Shown piece by piece: positions 5,902 to 23,531 of a DNA stretch of 64,000 bases; the first letter of the stretch is position 1; each line of letters opens with the position of its first letter. The notes below the pieces were generated by a model. That model saw only the letters and a program-made list of their open reading frames with translations. It ran no database searches and was not told the DNA's origin. Made by a program: the position numbers and the translations under genes. The stretch comes from Candidatus Kuenenia stuttgartensis (GTDB taxonomy: Bacteria > Planctomycetota > Planctomycetia > Planctomycetales > Planctomycetaceae). The stretch is taken from the NCBI GenBank assembly GCA_945904015.1, contig CAMDPK010000011.1:1-64000 (forward strand), given 5' to 3'.

Positions 5902-5972
5902 GAGCCGGAACGCGCTAGCGTCCGGTTTGTTGTTGTTTTGTGTCCGAACCGGACGCTAGCGCGTTCCGGCTC
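5902..5972. repeat. perfect 26-bp palindromic element (GCGCTAGC family)
   Basis: The arms 5902-5927 and 5947-5972 are exact inverted copies around a T/G-rich 19-base loop. The ends read GAGCCGG/CCGGCTC. It occupies the divergent promoter region between dnaA and the PfkB kinase and is the intergenic sibling of the element inside dnaA. Confidence 0.9.
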
Positions 5973-6002
5973 ACCTGTTGAATCGAAGAGAACGAGGAAC
6001 TC

Positions 6003-6986
6003 ATGGTATACGACGTTTACGGCGTCGGGAATTCGTTGGTCGATATTCAAGCTCGCGTCGATGATCGGTTTTTGGAGCTGATCGGATTCGCGAAAGGGAT
6101 CATGACGCTCGTCGATGAGGCGGCTCAGCGGCGTGTGCTGGAAAAGCTCGCTGATCGGCCGACGAATCGCTGCGCGGGAGGCTCGGCCGCGAACACGATC
6201 ATGGGGGTCGTCGATTTCGGAGGGCAGGGGGCCTATGCCGGCAAGACCGGCCGCGATGAGATCGGCGAGTTCTTTCTGTCCGACATGCGACAACGCGGCG
6301 TCAGCATCGAAGTGCCGCCGACGGCCGGCCAGTCCGGGACGTGTGTCGTGCTCATCACCGATGATGCTCAGCGGACGATGCTGACGAATCTCGGAGTGTC
6401 AGCGACGCTCGGCCCCGACGACATCAATGAAGCGGACGTTCGGCAAGCGAAGTACGTCTACATCGAAGGCTACCTCTTCACGAATGAAGGCCCGCGAGCC
6501 GCCGCTCTCAAGGCAATCGAGCTGGCCAAGAAGAATGGCGTGAAGGTCGCCTTCACTGTGTCTGACCCGTTTTTGATCGGGCTGTTCCGCGACCGCTTCT
6601 GGCAGCTCATCGAAGAGGACGTCGATCTGCTGTTCTGCAACGAAGAGGAAGCTCGCGCGTTGACCGGCAAACAAGACTCGATCGAGTGTGCTCGGATCAT
6701 CCACCAACATTGCGAGAACGTCGCACTGACGCTGGGCAAGAACGGCAGTTTGTTGATGCACCAAGGCGAGGTCATTCCCGTCGAAGGTGTGCCGGTGGTC
6801 GCGATCGACACGACCGGAGCCGGCGACATGTACGCCGCCGGAATCCTGTACGGCATCACCAACGGCCCGACTTGGAAGCAAGCCGGCCACCTCGCCTCAC
6901 ACGCGGCGGCCCGGATCGTCGGACAACTCGGAGCACGCTTGCAGCGACGGTTCACTCGCGATGAGATCACGGCGTTGTTGAAGTAA
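6003..6986 (+). CDS. PfkB-family carbohydrate/adenosine kinase
   Basis: Ribokinase-fold kinase of 327 residues that probably phosphorylates a sugar or nucleoside. It shows the first PfkB signature region ([16 protein letters not shown] near residues 60-75), a substrate-loop [12 protein letters not shown] and the second signature [12 protein letters not shown] near 268-279, whose last Asp is the catalytic base. The start [14 protein letters not shown] resembles adenosine kinase-like members, so adenosine is a reasonable guess, but substrate cannot be assigned from sequence. It is divergent from dnaA and flanked on both sides by palindromic elements of the same family. Confidence 0.9.
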
Positions 6987-15954: not shown

Positions 15955-16047
15955 CTTGGGGACCGCGAGTCTTTTTCAGGCCGCGTCGTGGGACTTGGGT
16001 GTCACGGAAAATGTCCGCCGACCTGAAAAAGACCCGCGATCCCCAAG
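15955..16047. repeat. inverted repeat overlapping the 3' end of nrtD
   Basis: 26-base arms at 15955-15980 and 16022-16047 match with two mismatches (CTTGGGGA..CGCG.GTCTTTTTCAGG). The element spans the stop codon of the ABC ATPase gene and encodes its last 20-odd residues. A related half-copy (GCGAGTCTTTTTCCTG) occurs at about 61889-61904. Confidence 0.8.
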
Positions 16048-16890
16048 TTCGCGCGGGGGAATGTTGTGTGGATCGTTGGTCATCTCCTCACGGACTTTCG
16101 GATGTTGAGCATTGTCCTCCAGGAATGAGATCAGTCGTTGTCGCAAACGGTCGTATTCCGGATGCTCGAAGACATCGTGTCGGTCTCGTGGCCGAGCGAA
16201 CGGCACTTCCAAAATATCGCCGATGCGCGCGGCCGGGCCGTTGGTCATCATCACGATGCGGTCCGAGAGGAACAGCGCCTCATCGACATCGTGCGTGACC
16301 ATCAGCGCGGTCTTGCGATCGGTCGCCCACAGGTCGAGCAACACTTGTTGCAGCTCCATTCGCGTCAGGCTGTCGAGCATCCCGAACGGCTCGTCGAGCA
16401 ACAGCATCATCGGCGACAGCGCGAATGCCCGCGCGATGCCGACTCGTTGCCGCATCCCGCCGGAGAGCTGGTTCGGATGCACGTCCAGCGAATCGCCGAG
16501 TCCCACGAGATCCAAATAGTGCGCCGCGATCGCGCGCTGCTCCGCGCGGGACTTGTTCGGCGCAACCTGCTCGACGCCGAGGGTGACGTTCTGCAACGCT
16601 GTCATCCACGGCAACAGGCAGGGAGCTTGAAACACAACGCCGCGATCCGGCCCGGCCTCTTTGACTTCGCGTCCGGCCAGGACAATGCCGCCGCCGGTTG
16701 GATCATTCAGCCCGGCAATCATCGACAGAACGGTCGATTTGCCGCAGCCGGAGTGACCGATGACCGAGACGAATTCCCCTTCGGCCACGTTGAGCGTGAA
16801 GTCCTCGACGATCATGGCAGGCGGGCCGCTCGGCGACGGATACGACTTCTGCAGCTTCCAGATTTCCAGATATTTTTCGGGGTGATTCAT
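15976..16890 (-). CDS. nitrate-type ABC transporter ATP-binding protein (NrtD-like)
   Basis: Energises import with the NrtB-like permease. From ATG 16890 (preceded by AAGGAAC) the protein is about 304 residues. It has Walker [11 protein letters not shown]-loop [13 protein letters not shown], signature [14 protein letters not shown], Walker [12 protein letters not shown] and switch His in [10 protein letters not shown]. The LLPWMT and [12 protein letters not shown] segments are typical of the nitrate/sulfonate/taurine-type importers, close to NrtD/CmpD. The last 20-odd residues (after [12 protein letters not shown]) are encoded by a palindromic element and look unrelated to the family. A longer frame from 16959 overlaps the neighbouring gene and is less likely. 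Confidence 0.92.
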
Positions 16891-16907
16891 GTCGTTCCTT
16901 GCGTTCA

Positions 16908-17026
16908 ACGTAGCCATCATCGCTCCGCGTGATGAGCCGAATTCTTCTGATCGTCTCAATTGCTCACAACAAAAGGTTGGCGTCGTGAAGCGCTCGGCTC
17001 GTCACGCGGAGCGATGACGGCTACGT
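16908..17026. repeat. inverted repeat spanning the junction of the two ABC ATPase genes
   Basis: 31-base arms (16908-16938 and 16996-17026) are inverted copies with two mismatches, core ATCGCTCCGCGTGA. The right arm codes for part of the C-terminal tail of the NrtC-like protein; the left arm lies in the leader of the nrtD-like gene. Confidence 0.82.
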
Positions 17027-17891
17027 TCTCTCGGTGCGGCTTTTTCCGTGCCCCTTCACCGAGCAAATAGTCGAGCACCTCATTCCGCAGGCGTTTGAAA
17101 TGCGGATCGCGTTGAACCGTCTTGCGGTTGCGCGGGCGGTCCAGATCGACTTCGACGGCCGGACCGAGCGTCGCTCCGGGGCCGGCGCTGAGCGGGATCA
17201 CTCGGTCGGCCAGCAGCAAGGCTTCGTCGACGTCATTCGTGATGAGCAAAACCGTCTTGCGATCCCGTTCCCAGATTTGTTCGATCTCATCCTGCAACGT
17301 CGCGCGTGTGAGGGCATCGAGTGCGCTGAGCGGTTCATCGAGCAGCAGCATCTCCGGATTCATGGCCAGCGTGCGAGCGACGGACACGCGCTGTCGCATT
17401 CCGCCGGACAACTCATGCGGTCGTTTACTCCTCGCAGGCGTGAGATTCACCATCGAGATGTATTGCTCGATGTGTGCCTGTCGTTTTTCCTTCGACCAGT
17501 TGGGAAACAGTTGATCGACCGCGAGTGCGATGTTCTCGAAGACCGTCAGCCACGGCAGCAGCGAATAGTTTTGAAAGACGAGTCCACGCTCGGGGCTAGG
17601 CCCGGTGATCTCGCGACCGTCCATCATCACGGTGCCGAAGTCGGGCCGAATCAGACCGGCCAGTAGTGACATCAGTGTCGTCTTGCCCGAACCGGAGTAG
17701 CCGACGATCGCCACGAACTCACCGCGCGCGATGTCGAGGTTCAAGTCCTTAAGCACCTCGCGACGCTGCTGACCAAAGCCGTAGCTTTTCGAGACGTGCT
17801 TCAGTTTCACGAATGGCAGCGAAGACATGCGGACATAATCCGGCTCAGTGGATCGAGCGGTGATTGGCGGCGATTCCAGGAGAGCGGACAT
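16956..17891 (-). CDS. nitrate-type ABC transporter ATP-binding protein (NrtC-like, ATPase domain only)
   Basis: Second ATPase of the importer, 311 residues. Motifs are Walker [27 protein letters not shown], signature [16 protein letters not shown], Walker [12 protein letters not shown] and [14 protein letters not shown], where Asn replaces the usual switch His. Cyanobacterial NrtC carries an extra C-terminal NrtA-like regulatory domain, which is absent here. The C-terminal tail after LLGEGARKK is partly encoded by a palindromic element. It lies between the permease gene and the nrtD-like gene. Confidence 0.9.
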
Positions 17892-17928
17892 GGTCGATTC
17901 ACTTTCGGTGATTGTGATGATCGGCTGT

Positions 17929-18007
17929 GGGCTGAAAGCTGATGGCTGTCGGCTGTCATCCCAAACTCAAGCGGCTTGAATTGAAACGACAGCCATCAGC
18001 TTTCGGC
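17929..18007. repeat. inverted repeat between nrtB and nrtC
   Basis: GCTGAAAGCTGATGGCTGTCG near 17930-17950 is matched by its inverted copy at about 17987-18007, with extra GGCTGTCGGC-type words on both sides. It shares the GGCCGACAGCC word with the perfect palindrome at 18851. Confidence 0.75.
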
Positions 18008-18032
18008 CGACAGCCTTCAGCCGGCAAGAGGA

Positions 18033-18815
18033 TCATGCCTTCGCGACTTGCAGCCGGCGTTCGACGAGACCCATCAGGCGATCCAGGATGAAGCCGATCA
18101 CGCCGATGGTCACGATGCAGAGAATGATGTGTTCGTAGATCAGGCTGTTGTATTCCTGCCACAAGAAGCCGCCGACACCGGGGCTGCCGGTCAGCATCTC
18201 GGCGGCGACGATCACCAACCACGCGATGCCCAGGCTCAGGCGAAAGCCGGTGAACATGTACGGCAGAGTCGCCGGCAGCAGAATCTTCAGCAGCGTCTTC
18301 ATCCGTGACAGGTTCAGCACGCGAGCGACGTTGAGATAGTCCTGCGGAATCGCTCGCACGCCAACCGCTGTGTTGAGCACTGTCGGCCACATCGAACAGA
18401 GCGCGATTGTGAAGATGGCCGCAGGCTCTGACTTCTGAAACAAAACCAATCCCAACGGCAACCACGCCAACGGCGAGACAGGACGCAGGATTTGAATGAT
18501 CGGATCAAACGTCTTCGCGAACATCTTCGACATGCCCAGCACAAAGCCCAGCGGCGTGCCGATCAGCAGAGCGATCGTGTAGCCCTTCGCCACCAGAATC
18601 AGCGAGTACCACGTGAACCGCAGGATGCCTTGATCCAGCTCGCCACGCTTCTCGAACGGCTTCATCAGATACGGCTGACTGACTTCCCACGTCTTCCACG
18701 GCGTCGGCAGGTTCGGTGCCCATGTCTTGCTGGAGATGGCCCACAACACCACAACGGCGACGATGCCGAGGAATGGGAGGACGATCCAATCACCGCGAAA
18801 TTTGCGTTCGTTCAT
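18033..18815 (-). CDS. nitrate-type ABC transporter permease (NrtB-like)
   Basis: Inner-membrane channel subunit of about 260 residues from ATG 18815 (MNERKFRGDW). It has a first membrane helix (IVLPFLGIVAVVVLWAIS) and a BPD_transp_1 core with the LRPVSPLAWLPLGLVLF segment and the EAA-type loop YLNVARVLNLSRMKTLLKILLPATLPYMFTG region. The SPLAWLPLGLV sequence is characteristic of NrtB/CmpB-like permeases. The longer frame up to 18935 runs through a palindromic element and is not believed. It is co-directional with nrtA upstream and both ATPases downstream. Confidence 0.92.
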   Translation of the reverse strand: MNERKFRGDWIVLPFLGIVAVVVLWAISSKTWAPNLPTPWKTWEVSQPYLMKPFEKRGELDQGILRFTWYSLILVAKGYTIALLIGTPLGFVLGMSKMFAKTFDPIIQILRPVSPLAWLPLGLVLFQKSEPAAIFTIALCSMWPTVLNTAVGVRAIPQDYLNVARVLNLSRMKTLLKILLPATLPYMFTGFRLSLGIAWLVIVAAEMLTGSPGVGGFLWQEYNSLIYEHIILCIVTIGVIGFILDRLMGLVERRLQVAKA

Positions 18816-18850
18816 GGGAGAGCCCCGTGACTTTCTGAGGAATTCCTGTC

Positions 18851-18913
18851 TGGCCGACAGCCGTAATACCGTTTTTTGCGAATCACAAAAAACGGTATTA
18901 CGGCTGTCGGCCA
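18851..18913. repeat. perfect 28-bp palindrome between nrtA and nrtB
   Basis: Arms 18851-18878 and 18886-18913 are exact inverted copies around a 7-base loop. The outer part is TGGCCGACAGCCGTAATACC and the inner part is T-rich. In the transcript it would form a very stable stem in the nrtA-nrtB gap, suited to separating expression of the binding protein from the membrane components. Confidence 0.92.
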
Positions 18914-18935
18914 TCGGCTGACGGCGTTCGGCCAA

Positions 18936-20354
18936 TTACTTCAAACTGTTGATGGCGAATGACGTCGCGTACTTCTCCGGATCGGCGGGATCGAAGATGC
19001 CGCCGTCGAAGAACTTTTCGGGATCGGAGTTCGCCCCTCCATGAGCGAAGCCGATTTCTTTCATCGCTTCTTCGTAGAGGTCGGGCCGCATGACTTGTTT
19101 GGCGATGCCGTCGTAATCGGGAGTCCCCTCGACCATGCCCCAGCGGCGGAATTGCGACAGCCACCACGTTGCGTACTTGAGTTGCGGGTAGTTGCAGTTG
19201 CGGTCGTGGAAGATCATGTAGTTCTTGTCTTGGAACGAGCGGCCGTCCCCCATGTCGTAGTGGCCTTGCAAGCGGCCGAGGATGATTTCCTTGGGGCAGT
19301 TGATGTAGCTCGCGGCCGAGACGATCTCCGCCTGCTCCGGCCGGTTGTCCATGTTGTCGAGCCAGATGCTCGCCTCGTGCAGAGCCTTCAGCACCGCTTT
19401 GACCGTCTTCGGATTCTTCTCCGCGAACTCAGCGGTGAAGGCACACACCTTCTCCGGATGATCGGGCCACATCTCCTGCGTGGTGATCGACGTGAAGCCA
19501 ATACCGTCGGAGATAGCTCGCGCGTTCCACGGTTCGCCGACGCAGTAGCCGTCCATCTTGTCGACCTTCATGTTGGCGACCATCTGTGGCGGCGGCACAG
19601 TGGCGAGCGCGACGTCCTTGTCAGGATGAATGCCGCCGGCCGCGAGGTAATACCGCATCCACATGGCGTGAGTGCCGGGCGGGAAGGTCATCGCGAAGGT
19701 CAGCGGTGTGCCTTTCGCTTTGGCCTCATCGACGAACGGCTTCAACGCTTTCGGATCGTTGGTGACTTTCCCTTTGAAGCTGGCCTTGAGCGTGATCGCC
19801 TGCCCGTTTCGATTGAGCAACCACGGCACGATCATCGGTTTCTTGGGCGAACCGAGCAGCCCCATCGTCGAGGCAATGGGCATGCCGATCAGCATGTGCG
19901 TCGCATGCAGATCGCCATTGGTCAGCGAATCGCGAATCGCCGCCCAGCTCGCCCCTTTCATCACCGTCGAGTTGATGCCGTACTTCTTGAACAACCCTTT
20001 CTCGTGAGCAATCACGATCGGCGAGCAATCGGTCAGCGCGATGATTCCGAACTTCAAGTCGGTCACTTCAGGAGCATCGCTGACCGTCACCGCACCGGCG
20101 GTCGGCGACGGAGTCAGCTCGGCCGGAGTCTTCGCGCTGCCGGCCGGAGTCGCGGAACTCGAATCCGCGCAGCCGCTCAGACTGCCGACCACACCCGCTC
20201 CGAATAGCCCCGATGTCGCGGCGATAAACCGCCGACGGGTGAGTGATGCCACAACTCCCTGAGCACCGCTCACGCGCGTCGGAGGCACCAGCTCGCCGGC
20301 CGGCGAAGTTGTTGTTGACGGCGATTTCAATTTCTCACCGGACTTCTTGGACAT
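18936..20354 (-). CDS. nitrate/bicarbonate-type ABC transporter substrate-binding protein (NrtA-like)
   Basis: About 472 residues from ATG 20354, which follows GGAGAAACG. The N-terminus carries a Tat signal (TRRRFIAATSGLFGAG) ending in a lipobox-like SLSGC, so it is likely a Tat-exported lipoprotein. The body matches NrtA/CmpA: LKFGIIALTDCSPIVIAHEKGLF, GASWAAIRDSL, HMLIGMP, DGYCVGEPWNARA, TTQEMWPDHPEKV. In characterised homologues these segments bind nitrate or bicarbonate; the GEPWNARA and DCSP sites are intact. Nitrate is favoured, but bicarbonate cannot be excluded. Confidence 0.93.
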   Translation of the reverse strand: MSKKSGEKLKSPSTTTSPAGELVPPTRVSGAQGVVASLTRRRFIAATSGLFGAGVVGSLSGCADSSSATPAGSAKTPAELTPSPTAGAVTVSDAPEVTDLKFGIIALTDCSPIVIAHEKGLFKKYGINSTVMKGASWAAIRDSLTNGDLHATHMLIGMPIASTMGLLGSPKKPMIVPWLLNRNGQAITLKASFKGKVTNDPKALKPFVDEAKAKGTPLTFAMTFPPGTHAMWMRYYLAAGGIHPDKDVALATVPPPQMVANMKVDKMDGYCVGEPWNARAISDGIGFTSITTQEMWPDHPEKVCAFTAEFAEKNPKTVKAVLKALHEASIWLDNMDNRPEQAEIVSAASYINCPKEIILGRLQGHYDMGDGRSFQDKNYMIFHDRNCNYPQLKYATWWLSQFRRWGMVEGTPDYDGIAKQVMRPDLYEEAMKEIGFAHGGANSDPEKFFDGGIFDPADPEKYATSFAINSLK

Positions 20355-20390
20355 GAACCGTTTCTCCTCAATGGCCATTGGCGGCCCGGA

Positions 20391-20660
20391 TCAAAAGGTG
20401 CGTTGTGACGGCTGCAACACAGAGCCAGCCGCGACGTAAGCCAGCGCGAGGTATTCTTTGAATTTCTCGATCGCATCCGGCTGTGACCAATCGAGCTCGA
20501 ACTCTTCTTCGAGAGTCTCCAACAGCAACGTGCCGAGATCGTTGCGATCCCATTCGTACTTCTGCTCGCGCTTCATCACCTCGACGATGCGATGTGCGAA
20601 TCGCAATCGAAACTCGAATGACGCGGGCAGCGACACAGGCTCGATGCAGGTGGCAACCAT
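20391..20660 (-). CDS. small protein of unknown function heading the nrt operon
   Basis: 89 residues from ATG 20660 (MVATCIEPVSLP), preceded by GGAAAG. It is rich in charged helical sequence (RIVEVMKREQKYEWDRNDLGT) with an acidic centre (LEEEFELDWSQ). No signal peptide or membrane helix. Not recognised as a known family. It lies 36 bases before nrtA in the same direction and starts the apparent operon, so it may be a regulatory or accessory component. A longer frame reaching 20798 lacks support. Confidence 0.6.
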   Translation of the reverse strand: MVATCIEPVSLPASFEFRLRFAHRIVEVMKREQKYEWDRNDLGTLLLETLEEEFELDWSQPDAIEKFKEYLALAYVAAGSVLQPSQRTF

Positions 20661-21094
20661 GATGTCACGCTTTCCAAAAAACAGGTCCGTCAGATCCCAC
20701 CGACGGCTCTTTCGGAGACATCGAAGGCAATGGTCATACCGCATCGCGCGGCATGTGATAAAAGCGTGGCTAACCACGTATGCCGCGCGAGATTCCAACG
20801 ATGGACCGCACGGCGATGCAGCACAATCGGCGCGATCGGCTGGCAGTCAGCGACTGATGATCGGTCTTGCTCGATGCGTGCTGCCGATAACTCAGGCGTC
20901 ACCGTCGCGCGGTTGAGCAAGGGTGAATCCCGCCACCCCGCTTGCCGGGGTGGTTCCCGCGCTCTGAAGCTACGGGCCACGAGTGCTCAGCAATACTTCG
21001 ATCGTGGCATCTTTCTGCCGCTCAACGCCGTAGCTGCAGAGCGCGGGAACCACCGGGACAAGCCCGGTAGCGGAATTGATTCGCAGACTCGAAG
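20661..21094. other. divergent regulatory gap between the nrt operon and the kinase operon
   Basis: 434 bases separate the small nrt-operon gene (minus) from the histidine kinase gene (plus). No gene was found. It must contain both promoters. The right half is filled by the large inverted repeat at 20925-21082. No clear sigma-54 site or inverted operator was identified by eye. Confidence 0.5.
20925..21082. repeat. large inverted repeat upstream of the histidine kinase gene
   Basis: Arms of about 51-55 bases (20925-20975 and 21028-21082) are imperfect inverted copies sharing GGTGGTTCCCGCGCTCTG and GCTACGG at the inner end. The loop is about 52 bases. It ends 12 bases before the kinase ATG. 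Confidence 0.8.
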
Positions 21095-22189
21095 ATGCAC
21101 CGCATGGCGACAACCTCTTCGAGTGGGACGAGACACGAGCGGCGAACATTGGTCAACGTGGTGATCTTCGCCGCGCTGGTGTTTGTCGTGGACGTGCTGT
21201 TGCCATTGGGAGTCGCGAGCGGCGTGCTGCATGTCGGCGTGGTGTTGATCGCCTTGCGATCGACGTCCGAACGAATGGTGATTGGAACGGCGATCGCTTG
21301 TTCGTTGCTGACGTTGCTCGACATGCCGTTGTCGCCCGGTCCTGGCCTCACCGAGTGGTGGAAGGTGATCGTCAATCGCGGGCTATCCATCTTCGTGATT
21401 TGGGTAACGGCCATCCTTGGCCGGCAGCGCAATCGCGCGGCGGAGGCTCAGCGGCGGCACTTGTCGGAACTCGCCCATCTCGGCCGCGTGAAGACCGCCG
21501 AATGCCTCGCAGGAGCGCTCGCGCACGAGTTGAATCAGCCGCTAACCGCCGTCGCTTTGCAGGCAGAAGTCGCGCGGCAGCGGCTCGCCGGGCTGAGCGA
21601 TTCCGCAGAACTCGACGCAGCGCTTCGCGAGATCGCCGAGCAATCGCATCGAGCCAGCGACATCGTGCGCGCGCTCCGAAACATGGTGCGACGCACCGAT
21701 TCCGAACGGCAAGTCGTCGATCTTCGCGAATTGCTCGATGAGACGTTGCGATTGATGCAAACGGCCGCCAAGCAAGCAGAGGTTGAACTCCGTTCGCAAT
21801 CGGCTCCGCAGCCGCTGCTCGTCCAAGTCGATCGCGTGCAGGTCGAGCAAGTGCTGCTGAACCTGCTGCAAAACGCCGTCGATGCTTTGTCGATCACTAC
21901 GGCGAACCAACGACTCATCACGATCACGGCGAATCAAACCTCGCCGCGCGAGATCCGTGTGGAAGTCAGCGACTCCGGTCCCGGCATTCCGCCGGAGTTG
22001 GCTCAACGTCTGTTTGATCCATTCTGCACGTCGAAGTCGCACGGCTTGGGATTAGGCTTGGCGATCAGCCAGTCGATCATCGAATCTCACGGAGGCCGGC
22101 TGTGGCTGGCATCGGCCGAAGAGCCGAACAATCCGAAATCGCCTCGCCCCGGCACGACGTTCGCATTCACGCTACCGGTGGCTTCGTAG
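21095..22189 (+). CDS. membrane sensor histidine kinase
   Basis: 364 residues. The N-terminal third holds about four membrane helices (roughly 19-38, 42-56, 61-78, 93-109) with almost no periplasmic domain, so the signal is probably intramembrane or cytoplasmic. The HisKA phosphoacceptor is His144 in ALAHELNQPLTAV, followed by N box NLLQNAVDAL, G1 DSGPGIP, F box LFDPFCTSK and G2 GLGLGLAIS. HELNQPL is typical of FixL/TtrS-like kinases that work with FixJ/LuxR-type regulators, one of which is two genes downstream. The stop TAG overlaps the foot of a palindrome. Confidence 0.93.
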   Translation: MHRMATTSSSGTRHERRTLVNVVIFAALVFVVDVLLPLGVASGVLHVGVVLIALRSTSERMVIGTAIACSLLTLLDMPLSPGPGLTEWWKVIVNRGLSIFVIWVTAILGRQRNRAAEAQRRHLSELAHLGRVKTAECLAGALAHELNQPLTAVALQAEVARQRLAGLSDSAELDAALREIAEQSHRASDIVRALRNMVRRTDSERQVVDLRELLDETLRLMQTAAKQAEVELRSQSAPQPLLVQVDRVQVEQVLLNLLQNAVDALSITTANQRLITITANQTSPREIRVEVSDSGPGIPPELAQRLFDPFCTSKSHGLGLGLAISQSIIESHGGRLWLASAEEPNNPKSPRPGTTFAFTLPVAS

Positions 22190-22280
22190 GTTGGGACTCC
22201 GTCCCGACCACTTCCATCAACCAAGCGATTTCCACAAATGAGCGTCGCATCATGCAGGTCGGGTCGGGGACCCAACCTAC
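22186..22280. repeat. GTAG-footed inverted repeat between kinase and cld genes
   Basis: GTAGGTTGGGACTCCGTCCC at 22186-22205 opens the left arm, and the right arm 22257-22280 ends CCCAACCTAC. It is the same family as 8408-8456 but with a 47-base loop. The TAG stop of the kinase gene is within the left foot. Confidence 0.85.
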
Positions 22281-22313
22281 AAGTCTTCCGGCGACGACGA
22301 GGCGTGTTTTGAA

Positions 22314-22898
22314 ATGATCTCGCAAGGTCCAGAAACAAACCCTCGGCTCTTCACGTTTGTCGGCGGGACAACGGGGCTTTGGACGGTCACCGACGTGAAG
22401 GCGGTGATCGGAGAATCTCTCGCGGTGACTGAGCGGCTCGACATCATCAACGGATCAGTTTCCGTCCCACCCGACGGGTCGAAATGGATTCTGCGCGGCG
22501 CGACCAGCAACGAACGTTATGCGACTCGCTCCGAAAAAGATCTGATGGTCGCGAAGCAGACCGCGCTGGGTCGTCCCAAAGCGACCTGTGCGGCGTTGAT
22601 TCCAATTCGGAAAAATCCCCAATGGTGGAGTCTGACTCAAGACGAACGCCGCACCATTTTCGAGGACCGCTCACGACATGTGCAGATCGGGTTGAGATAT
22701 TTGCCGGCGGTCGCACGCCGTCTCCATCACTGCCGAGACTTGGAGGAGAGCGAACCATTCGACTTCGTGACCTTGTTCGACTATGCCCCGTCCGACTCGG
22801 CCGCGTTCGAGGAAATGGTGGCCGAGTTGCGAGCGTCTGAAGAATGGAAGTTCGTCGAACGAGAAGTCGACATCCGCATGAATCGCGACTGGGATTAG
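22314..22898 (+). CDS. cld: chlorite dismutase (short, dimeric lineage)
   Basis: Heme enzyme expected to convert chlorite to chloride and O2. The 194 residues match the short Cld type known from Nitrobacter. Recognisable are WILRGATSNERY, EKDLMVAKQTALGRP, AALIPIRKNPQWW, TQDERRTIFEDRS, LRYLPAVARRLHHCRDL, PFDFVTLFDYAP, ASEEWKFVEREVDIRM. The proximal heme ligand corresponds to His122 and the distal catalytic arginine to Arg135, spaced 13 residues as in characterised enzymes. No signal peptide, so cytoplasmic. It sits between a sensor kinase and a FixJ-type regulator, 6 bases before the latter, and close to a nitrate-type importer. Confidence 0.92.
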   Translation: MISQGPETNPRLFTFVGGTTGLWTVTDVKAVIGESLAVTERLDIINGSVSVPPDGSKWILRGATSNERYATRSEKDLMVAKQTALGRPKATCAALIPIRKNPQWWSLTQDERRTIFEDRSRHVQIGLRYLPAVARRLHHCRDLEESEPFDFVTLFDYAPSDSAAFEEMVAELRASEEWKFVEREVDIRMNRDWD

Positions 22899-22904
22899 TT
22901 TCGA

Positions 22905-23531
22905 ATGATGCCCGCACCGACGCTGTATCTGATCGACGATGACCGAGCCGTGACCTACGCGTTGGAAGCGGTTGGCAATTTGTTGCGCTTGCCGGTGTTG
23001 GCGTTTTCGTCGGCCGAAAGTTTTTTGAAGTTTGATTTGGCGAACGCGGTCGGCTGCCTGATCGTGGACATCAAGCTGCCGGGGATGAACGGTCTCGAAC
23101 TGCAAGCTGCGTTGCGCGAGCGTTCGTGCGAACTGCCGGTCATCGTCATCAGCGGTCACGCCGACGTGCCGCTGGCTGTCGAAGCGATGCGCCTCGGGGC
23201 ACTCACGGTGCTCGAAAAGCCGTTTCCGCTGGACCAACTCACGCCGCACATCCGACACGCGATCGAATTGGACCGAACACGTCGCGAGCTTTCACAGCAA
23301 CGCGAACTTGCGCGCAGCCGGATGGCGACGCTGACTCCGCGCGAACGCGAAGTGCTGGACCTGGTCACTCAGGGCAAGACGAACAAGGAGATCGCGGCGA
23401 AGTTGCATCTGACTCTGCGAGCCATCGAAGACCGCCGCTCGCGGTTGATGCGGCGTGTGGGAGTCAATTCGCTGGCGGAATTGCTCGCGCTGGTCCAGCA
23501 AGCCAATCTCGGCGAGGCACCAAAGAACTGA
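22905..23531 (+). CDS. FixJ-type response regulator
   Basis: 208 residues. The receiver domain (1-120) has the acidic pocket DDD (11-13), phosphoacceptor Asp55 in VDIKLPGMNG and Lys105 in EKPFP. A LuxR/FixJ DNA-binding domain follows at about 143-195 (LTPREREVLDLVTQGKTNKE, with RAIEDRRSRLMRR as recognition helix). It follows the cld gene by 6 bases and is the natural partner of the kinase at 21095. The regulated genes probably include this operon or the divergent nrt operon, which is inference from position. Confidence 0.93.
   Translation: MMPAPTLYLIDDDRAVTYALEAVGNLLRLPVLAFSSAESFLKFDLANAVGCLIVDIKLPGMNGLELQAALRERSCELPVIVISGHADVPLAVEAMRLGALTVLEKPFPLDQLTPHIRHAIELDRTRRELSQQRELARSRMATLTPREREVLDLVTQGKTNKEIAAKLHLTLRAIEDRRSRLMRRVGVNSLAELLALVQQANLGEAPKN

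What the first reader, a model, noticed from the sequence alone, without database searches (positions are those of the whole stretch)
15976..23531. Nitrate importer next to a kinase-chlorite dismutase-FixJ operon
A cld gene sits between a membrane histidine kinase and a FixJ-type regulator, divergent from an nrt-type operon. Cld residues His122 and Arg135 are intact. Known chemistry: nitrate transporters and reductases can take up and reduce chlorate to toxic chlorite, which Cld destroys. The three-gene signalling/Cld unit could therefore sense and detoxify chlorite during nitrate use. It could also use the heme Cld protein as a sensor module for the kinase. I know of no described system with this arrangement.
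Basis: partly seen in the sequence, partly recalled or inferred. Interest (0 to 1): 0.82.

Follow-up and report, generated by a model that had tools for sequence, protein, structure and literature searches.

The report
Chlorite detoxification within a nitrate-import locus
A planctomycete bacterium keeps a gene for a chlorite-destroying enzyme beside its nitrate importer, and comparison with relatives suggests such genes joined nitrate importers several separate times, probably as protection against chlorate taken in along with nitrate.

Summary
In detail: at 15976-23531 an nrtABCD operon lies divergent from a histidine kinase-Cld-FixJ-type operon. The detoxification idea is supported; Cld as the kinase's haem sensor is not. 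In the same family a kinase-FixJ pair of this type stands beside nrtA in 7 genomes. Cld lies between kinase and regulator (2), before the kinase (1), inside the nrt operon (2), or was not found in the genome (2). Nrt-linked Clds belong to different lineages: 54% identical where NrtA is 87%; a single clade is rejected, p 7e-8. No export signal was seen in 14 nrt-linked Clds; in the window Cld's own clade 9 of 13 unlinked ones have a twin-arginine motif. The genome also has a narK-nirBD-nasA-like operon, and a palindrome, CGTGG-N4-CCACG, lies upstream of both nitrate operons. Best reading: chlorate enters as a nitrate mimic, is reduced in the cytoplasm to chlorite, and Cld removes it as part of the nitrate regulon. 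The cld-nitrate-transporter association is already published (PMC9751292): a new variant of a known kind. No activity or expression was measured.

The parts
15976..16959 (-). NrtD-type ATPase of the nitrate ABC importer
   Evidence: TIGR01184 328.1 bits, cut-off 291.8
16956..17891 (-). NrtC-type ATPase, 311 aa, without the C-terminal solute-binding-like domain of cyanobacterial NrtC
   Evidence: TIGR01184 300.7 bits, cut-off 291.8; length and Pfam
18033..18935 (-). NrtB-type permease
   Evidence: TIGR01183 238.3 bits, cut-off 209.05
18936..20378 (-). NrtA-type nitrate/nitrite-binding protein with an apparent twin-arginine lipoprotein signal (by eye)
   Evidence: PF13379 9e-96; best solved structure NrtA 2g29 305 bits versus CmpA 252; GTH and HPEK as in NrtA
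20391..20660 (-). conserved 89-codon ORF of unknown function ahead of nrtA
   Evidence: tblastn: 67-89% identity in G504, G512, G455, G500; weak match in G411; DNA conservation; no Pfam match at E 0.001
20764..20779 (.). palindrome GCGTGG-N4-CCACGT, candidate operator between the divergent operons
   Evidence: GCGTGG-N4-CCACGC at up to 1 mismatch in 6 of 7 nrtA-HK (or nrtA-Cld) intergenic regions; at most 1% of 400 shuffles of each region have one
21095..22189 (+). membrane histidine kinase: short multi-helix membrane region, then HisKA and HATPase_c; no PAS match
   Evidence: PF00512, PF02518; alignment of 9; model with 4 N-terminal helices, mean pLDDT 69
22314..22898 (+). clade-2 (lineage 2a type) chlorite dismutase, 194 aa, no signal peptide seen
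   Evidence: PF06778 above cut-off; 9gtj 1e-80, NwCld 3qpi, CCld 5k8z; H122, R135, E177, K100 invariant in 7 aligned sequences; no N-terminal extension
22905..23531 (+). FixJ/TtrR-type response regulator (receiver plus LuxR-type HTH)
   Evidence: PF00072, PF00196; NF006900 172.5 bits, below its cut-off of 255

Best explanation
This is a nitrate-uptake locus whose divergent two-component regulatory operon has captured a cytoplasmic chlorite dismutase. Proposed working: NrtABCD imports nitrate and, inadvertently, chlorate; the NasA-like Mo reductase encoded elsewhere in the genome (with a NarK-type transporter and NirBD) reduces chlorate to chlorite in the cytoplasm; Cld converts chlorite to chloride and O2 before it harms the cell. 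The kinase-FixJ pair is most likely a regulator of the nitrate system, acting through the CGTGG-N4-CCACG palindrome, so that Cld is made when nitrate (and chlorate) import is switched on. Shown here: gene content, linkage, repeated independent linkage, lack of a visible export signal, presence of a nitrate/nitrite operon, shared palindrome. Inferred: chlorate transport and reduction, chlorite activity, the signal sensed, and FixJ binding to the palindrome.
For: (1) Linkage: among 150 family genomes NrtA (E<=1e-60) is in 21, Cld (E<=1e-20) in 26, both in 11 (Fisher p 6e-5), or 12 counting G473, whose nrtA is cut by a contig end; 9 of those 12 have them within 8 kb. (2) Independent recruitment: in the window's genus Cld of G455 is 54% and NrtA 87% identical to the window's; nrt-linkage needs 8 changes on the Cld tree, at least 6 forced by starred branches; one clade of the 8 family nrt-linked Clds in the tree is rejected, p 7e-8. 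(3) Six positions: HK-cld-fixJ, cld-HK-fixJ, nrtA-cld-nrtBCD, nrtAB-cld (G497, contig ends there), nrtABCD-cld, and upstream of nrtA. (4) Compartment: a twin-arginine motif in 0 of 14 nrt-linked Clds; in the window Cld's 25-row clade 0 of 4 linked, 9 of 13 unlinked and 5 of 8 with too little flank (0/4 against 9/13, p 0.03, rows related). (5) Contig C114 of the same genome: NarK-family MFS, NirB-NirD fusion (1068 bits, cut-off 578), DmsB/C-like, NasA-like Mo enzyme. (6) CGTGG-N4-CCACG: 12 places in 7.43 Mb, one at nrtA-HK, one 232 bases before narK; at up to 1 mismatch also before narK in G455 and G473.
Against: No activity, transport or expression data exist. The NasA-like enzyme scores best on a formate dehydrogenase model (503 bits; NasA model 454; both below cut-off), and NarK is below its cut-off, so nitrate or chlorate reduction is inferred from operon context. 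Three genomes have both genes unlinked (G216, G392, G443), 10 of 21 nrt genomes have no Cld match, and most Clds are not nrt-linked: 14 linked, 59 not, 28 with too little flank, of 101 counted. The linked label is more clustered on the tree than in shuffles (8 changes against a mean of 13.2), so part of it is inherited. The signal evidence rests on motifs in longest frames with unverified starts; by a hydrophobicity threshold only 9 of those 21 rows pass, and 4 of 13 unlinked rows have no motif. The palindrome is not enriched genome-wide (15-base form: 5 places, control 8) nor in the window at 2 mismatches (6, expected 8.4); it is missing in G425, before narK of G500 and of G504 (a 41% homologue), is present in G443 without the kinase pair, and at narK lies upstream of a sigma-54-like promoter, so another activator may bind it. 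In G473 and G508 the kinase-FixJ pair is not beside nrt.
Confidence: 0.7

Rival explanations
1. Cld is a haem sensor or signalling partner of the kinase: it binds chlorite, nitrite or NO and sets kinase activity.
For: The gene lies between kinase and regulator in the window and G504, and before the kinase in G425; [quoted passage not shown]
Against: Related kinase-FixJ pairs occur in genomes where no Cld was found (G512 same genus, G411, G508; these are 87-97% complete assemblies) and with a Cld of another lineage inside the nrt operon (G455, G500). Catalytic residues are kept. No cld remnant was found in the G512 locus.
Confidence: 0.05
2. Cld works on chlorite (or another oxidant such as peroxynitrite) formed by oxidative or photochemical reactions, and is next to nrt only because the same conditions or regulator suit it, not because of chlorate import.
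For: Barnum and Coates discuss chlorite from chlorine oxidation and Cld in organisms without a reductase (PMC9751292, passages). Many family Clds are unlinked, and several of these carry export motifs.
Against: Repeated independent linkage to nitrate importers, and no export signal seen in those copies.
Confidence: 0.15
3. The adjacency is chance or hitch-hiking on mobile DNA.
For: Cld is widely transferred (PMC9751292, section 6); repeat-like inverted sequences lie in the spacers (by eye).
Against: 9 of 12 genomes with both genes have them linked; chance expectation about 0.3% per genome. Several lineages and positions.
Confidence: 0.04
4. The locus belongs to (per)chlorate respiration or uses chlorite as an O2 source.
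For: Cld makes O2.
Against: All five PF00384 matches in the genome lie on other contigs; of the four matching proteins scanned with NCBIfam, three score 88-193 bits on the type-II DMSO reductase model (cut-off 985) and one does not match it at E 1e-20. Transporter and reductase genes look assimilatory.
Confidence: 0.03

Closest known systems
Cld neighbourhood group 11 of Barnum and Coates 2022 (PMC9751292)
   Same: Cld beside nitrate-type ABC transporter genes; suggested chlorate transport; NarL/FixJ regulators and histidine kinases also listed near cld (Table 1)
   Different: No kinase-Cld-regulator operon is described in the sections and passages read, nor repeated recruitment to one kind of nrt locus within a family, nor a shared operator; the paper does report periplasmic copies among lineage 2a Clds (section 6)
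Clade-2 (lineage 2a) dimeric chlorite dismutases: NwCld 3qpi, CCld 5k8z, and 9gtj (source organism not seen)
   Same: Length and catalytic residues; match over nearly the whole protein
   Different: Gene context; activity of this protein unmeasured
Bradyrhizobium narK-bjgb-flp-nasC system (PMC4724949, abstract and passages read)
   Same: A detoxifying haem protein built into nitrate assimilation genes, under a nitrate-responsive regulator
   Different: Haemoglobin against NO and NasS-NasT regulation, not Cld against chlorite with kinase-FixJ
Cyanobacterial NrtABCD (2g29; 8w9m, 8wm7)
   Same: NrtA, NrtB and two ATPases
   Different: NrtC here lacks the fused C-terminal binding-like domain
FixLJ / TtrSR two-component systems
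   Same: Kinase core and FixJ/TtrR-like regulator
   Different: No PAS match; scores below FixL, TtrS, FixJ and TtrR cut-offs

Membership tests
Clade-2 chlorite dismutase | Cld family match and short (about 180-195 aa) length | tested here: met
   PF06778 35.7 bits, cut-off 25; 194 aa; 3qpi 5e-57
Clade-2 chlorite dismutase | Proximal His with Glu-Lys network and distal Arg | tested here: met
   H122, E177, K100, R135 invariant in 7 aligned sequences; roles of His, Glu, Lys and Arg from passages of PMC7611857; which residue is which by alignment to 5k8z and recalled CCld numbering
Clade-2 chlorite dismutase | Chlorite to chloride and O2 activity | not testable with these tools
   needs purified protein
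NrtABCD nitrate importer | Nitrate-type ATPases and permease | tested here: met
   TIGR01184 twice and TIGR01183 above cut-off
NrtABCD nitrate importer | Nitrate-type rather than bicarbonate-type binding protein | tested here: met
   2g29 305 bits versus 2i48 252; GTH and HPEK as in NrtA; the roles of these residues are recalled
NrtABCD nitrate importer | NrtC with fused C-terminal regulatory domain (cyanobacterial type) | tested here: not met
   311 aa, ABC domain only
FixLJ | Sensor with haem PAS domain | tested here: not met
   No PAS match in Pfam at E 0.01; membrane helices then kinase
FixLJ | FixJ equivalog score | tested here: not met
   172.5 bits, cut-off 255
Cld-nitrate transporter neighbourhood (Barnum and Coates group 11) | cld near nitrate-type ABC transporter subunits | tested here: met
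   14 of 101 Cld loci counted, window included, have nrtA or nrtB homologues within 8 kb
(Per)chlorate respiration island | Pcr or Clr reductase genes next to cld | tested here: not met
   five PF00384 matches in the genome, none in the window; four proteins scanned with NCBIfam, none near the type-II cut-off

The most novel reading that the evidence does not exclude
Chlorite dismutases have been drafted repeatedly and independently to the nitrate-import module within a single planctomycete family, at different positions including inside its two-component regulatory operon, with the drafted copies cytoplasmic although their relatives are often exported. If so, accidental chlorate import and reduction through nitrate assimilation is a real and recurring selective pressure at natural chlorate levels, and Cld is a regulated part of the nitrate regulon.
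Probability: 0.55. Interest if true: 0.68.

Novelty: new variant of a known kind. Interest (0 to 1): 0.55.

Why it matters
[quoted passage not shown] Repeated recruitment of a chlorite-destroying enzyme to nitrate-import loci would be natural-selection evidence that it does, and the family supplies close pairs (with and without cld, same importer and regulator) in which the question can be tested directly.

Tried and rejected
Cld as kinase sensor: rejected on the phylogenetic distribution. Palindrome hit at G000 C93:3757: inside a coding frame, taken as chance. CmpA-type bicarbonate importer: rejected. Respiratory chlorate reduction: no reductase of that kind seen. Sigma-54-like site: found before narK in G000, G455 and G473, and once in the nrt region of G425 out of 7, so not built into the model. 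A paper naming 9gtj was not found. Literature searches on cld with nitrate transporter (2 papers), histidine kinase (13), nitrate assimilation (3) and peroxynitrite (2): judged from titles and abstract beginnings, only PMC9751292 bears on this arrangement; the others were not opened and supplements were not read, and most subscription journals are not in the library.

The palindrome was found by eye in 5 aligned regions; only G411 (found), G425 (not found) and the narK regions are independent tests. The second AU test group (p 0.016) was chosen after the tree was seen; G424 has a long branch.
Full report
The observation. The nrtABCD operon runs on the minus strand from 20378 to 15976, and a histidine kinase, a Cld and a FixJ-type regulator run on the plus strand from 21095 to 23531. 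ATPases and permease pass nitrate-specific models, and the binding protein is of NrtA rather than CmpA type. The Cld matches solved clade-2 enzymes over nearly its full length and keeps the expected haem-pocket residues. The kinase is a short membrane region plus catalytic core without a PAS match; an AlphaFold model of moderate confidence (mean pLDDT 69) shows four N-terminal helices. The window lies in a 7.43 Mb, 286-contig genome, 91.7% complete, with a single Cld match; the nearest Cld records, apart from one titled Kuenenia, are titled Planctomycetales and Planctomycetia.

Synteny. Of 150 family genomes, 21 have an NrtA at E<=1e-60, 26 a Cld at E<=1e-20, and 11 a kinase match at E<=1e-50, of which 9 include the membrane region. 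I fetched neighbourhoods and read them with blastp against the window's genes. A kinase-FixJ pair of this type stands beside nrtA in 7 genomes: with Cld between kinase and regulator (window, G504), Cld before the kinase (G425), Cld between nrtA and nrtB (G455, and G500, where the locus is split over two contigs within nrtA), and with no Cld found in the genome (G512, G411). G504, G512 and G500 loci are cut by contig ends within or after nrtA. G473 has nrtA-cld-nrtBCD but its kinase pair is elsewhere; G508 has the kinase pair without NrtA or Cld matches. Other family members have nrtAB-cld up to a contig end (G497), nrtABCD-cld (G424), or cld upstream of a more distant nrtA (G419). Outside the family, nrtABCD-cld occurs in planctomycetes G004 and G220, nrtA-B-D-cld in beta-proteobacterial MAGs L070, L087 and L089, and nrtABC with cld a few genes away in Oxalobacteraceae L088.

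Independent recruitment. In the genus of the window, NrtA of G455 is 87% identical to the window's, but its Cld only 54%; Clds of G455, G500 and G473 are 77-88% identical to each other. On a tree of 85 Clds the label 'nrt-linked' (14 rows) needs 8 changes, at least 6 forced by well-supported branches; shuffled labels need 13.2 on average, so the label is also partly inherited. Forcing the eight family nrt-linked Clds into one clade is rejected (p 7e-8); forcing only the window group with G455 and G473, a group chosen after the tree was seen, gives p 0.016. Changes may be gains or losses, and 28 of 101 loci have too little flank, but one old linkage does not explain the data. Co-occurrence in the family is enriched (11 of 21 nrt genomes have Cld against 15 of 129 others, p 6e-5), and 9 of 12 genomes with both have them within 8 kb, counting G473. 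Genomes are related, so these p-values are rough.

Compartment. None of the 14 nrt-linked Clds has a hydrophobic N-terminal extension above my threshold, against 10 of 87 others, 59 unlinked and 28 with short flank. By twin-arginine motif the counts are 0 of 14 linked, 9 of 59 unlinked and 6 of 28 with short flank. In the 25-row clade that holds the window Cld they are 0 of 4 linked, 9 of 13 unlinked and 5 of 8 with short flank, the last including L023, the nearest relative outside the linked group. Only 9 of these 21 rows pass the hydrophobicity threshold, start codons are unverified, and four unlinked rows have no motif, so this is a tendency. It fits a need for Cld in the cytoplasm, where an assimilatory reductase would form chlorite.

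Nitrate metabolism elsewhere and a candidate operator. Contig C114 carries a NarK-family transporter, a NirB-NirD fusion, a DmsB/DmsC-like protein and a NasA-like Mo enzyme on one strand. The last scores below the equivalog cut-offs and slightly better on a formate dehydrogenase model than on NasA; its role is inferred from its neighbours. A palindrome, GCGTGG-N4-CCACGC, lies between nrtA and the kinase in 6 of 7 such regions at up to one mismatch; at most 1% of 400 shuffles of each region have one; of six nrt loci without the adjacent kinase pair one has it. Its core occurs at 12 places in the genome (7 for the reversed control), one of them 232 bases before narK. At up to one mismatch it is before narK in 3 of the 4 close narK homologues found among 15 genomes searched, and not near the fifth, a 41% homologue in G504. 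It is not enriched in the genome as such nor in the window at two mismatches. FixJ as its binder is a proposal.

Mechanism and verdict. The most economical reading is a nitrate regulon that carries its own chlorite disposal. Related kinase-FixJ pairs occur without Cld, so Cld is more likely cargo of the regulatory operon than its sensor. The chlorate-import idea for cld next to nitrate transporters is already in print (PMC9751292), and a haem detoxifier inside nitrate assimilation has a tested parallel in Bradyrhizobium (PMC4724949). What is added here is the kinase-Cld-regulator arrangement, the repeated drafting of different Cld lineages to one kind of nrt module, the compartment tendency and the shared palindrome.

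Noticed in passing
L138 (G500) 5942-6406: The G500 cld, inside the nrt operon, has one in-frame TAG over the matched stretch: either a broken gene or an assembly error.
   Followed up: no
window 22190-22313 and 20935-21075: Inverted-repeat, REP-like sequences in the HK-Cld spacer and upstream of HK; the first is not seen in the shorter G504 spacer (repeats judged by eye).
   Followed up: no
L220, L221, L223 (upstream of narK in G000, G455, G473): Sigma-54-like TGGCACG-N4-TTGTA site upstream of narK, near the palindrome.
   Followed up: partly
L130 7713-8600; L193 10445-11155; L196 8952-9632: In genus g291 a LuxR-type regulator without a Pfam receiver match precedes nrtAB-cld (G497) or stands directly next to cld without nrt nearby (G493, G513).
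   Followed up: partly
L088 3312-10579: Oxalobacteraceae locus with nrtABC, a PilJ-Hpt-HATPase sensor, a receiver protein, a CheX-like protein and Cld in a row: an independent nrt-signalling-cld grouping.
   Followed up: partly
window 20391-20660 (-): Conserved 89-codon ORF before nrtA, no Pfam match; clear relatives only in four genomes of the genus among the loci searched, weak match in G411.
   Followed up: partly
L031 473-1243 and 2563-3066: Two Cld frames on one 3,064-base contig, the second cut by its end.
   Followed up: no
L021: A contig titled Candidatus Kuenenia stuttgartiensis matches six window proteins at 80-96% identity and appears to be genome G504, placed in the window's genus, so its title looks wrong.
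   Followed up: partly
window 25655-50209 (-): Single 8184-aa ORF with many repeats that look like calcium-binding haemolysin-type repeats (by eye).
   Followed up: no
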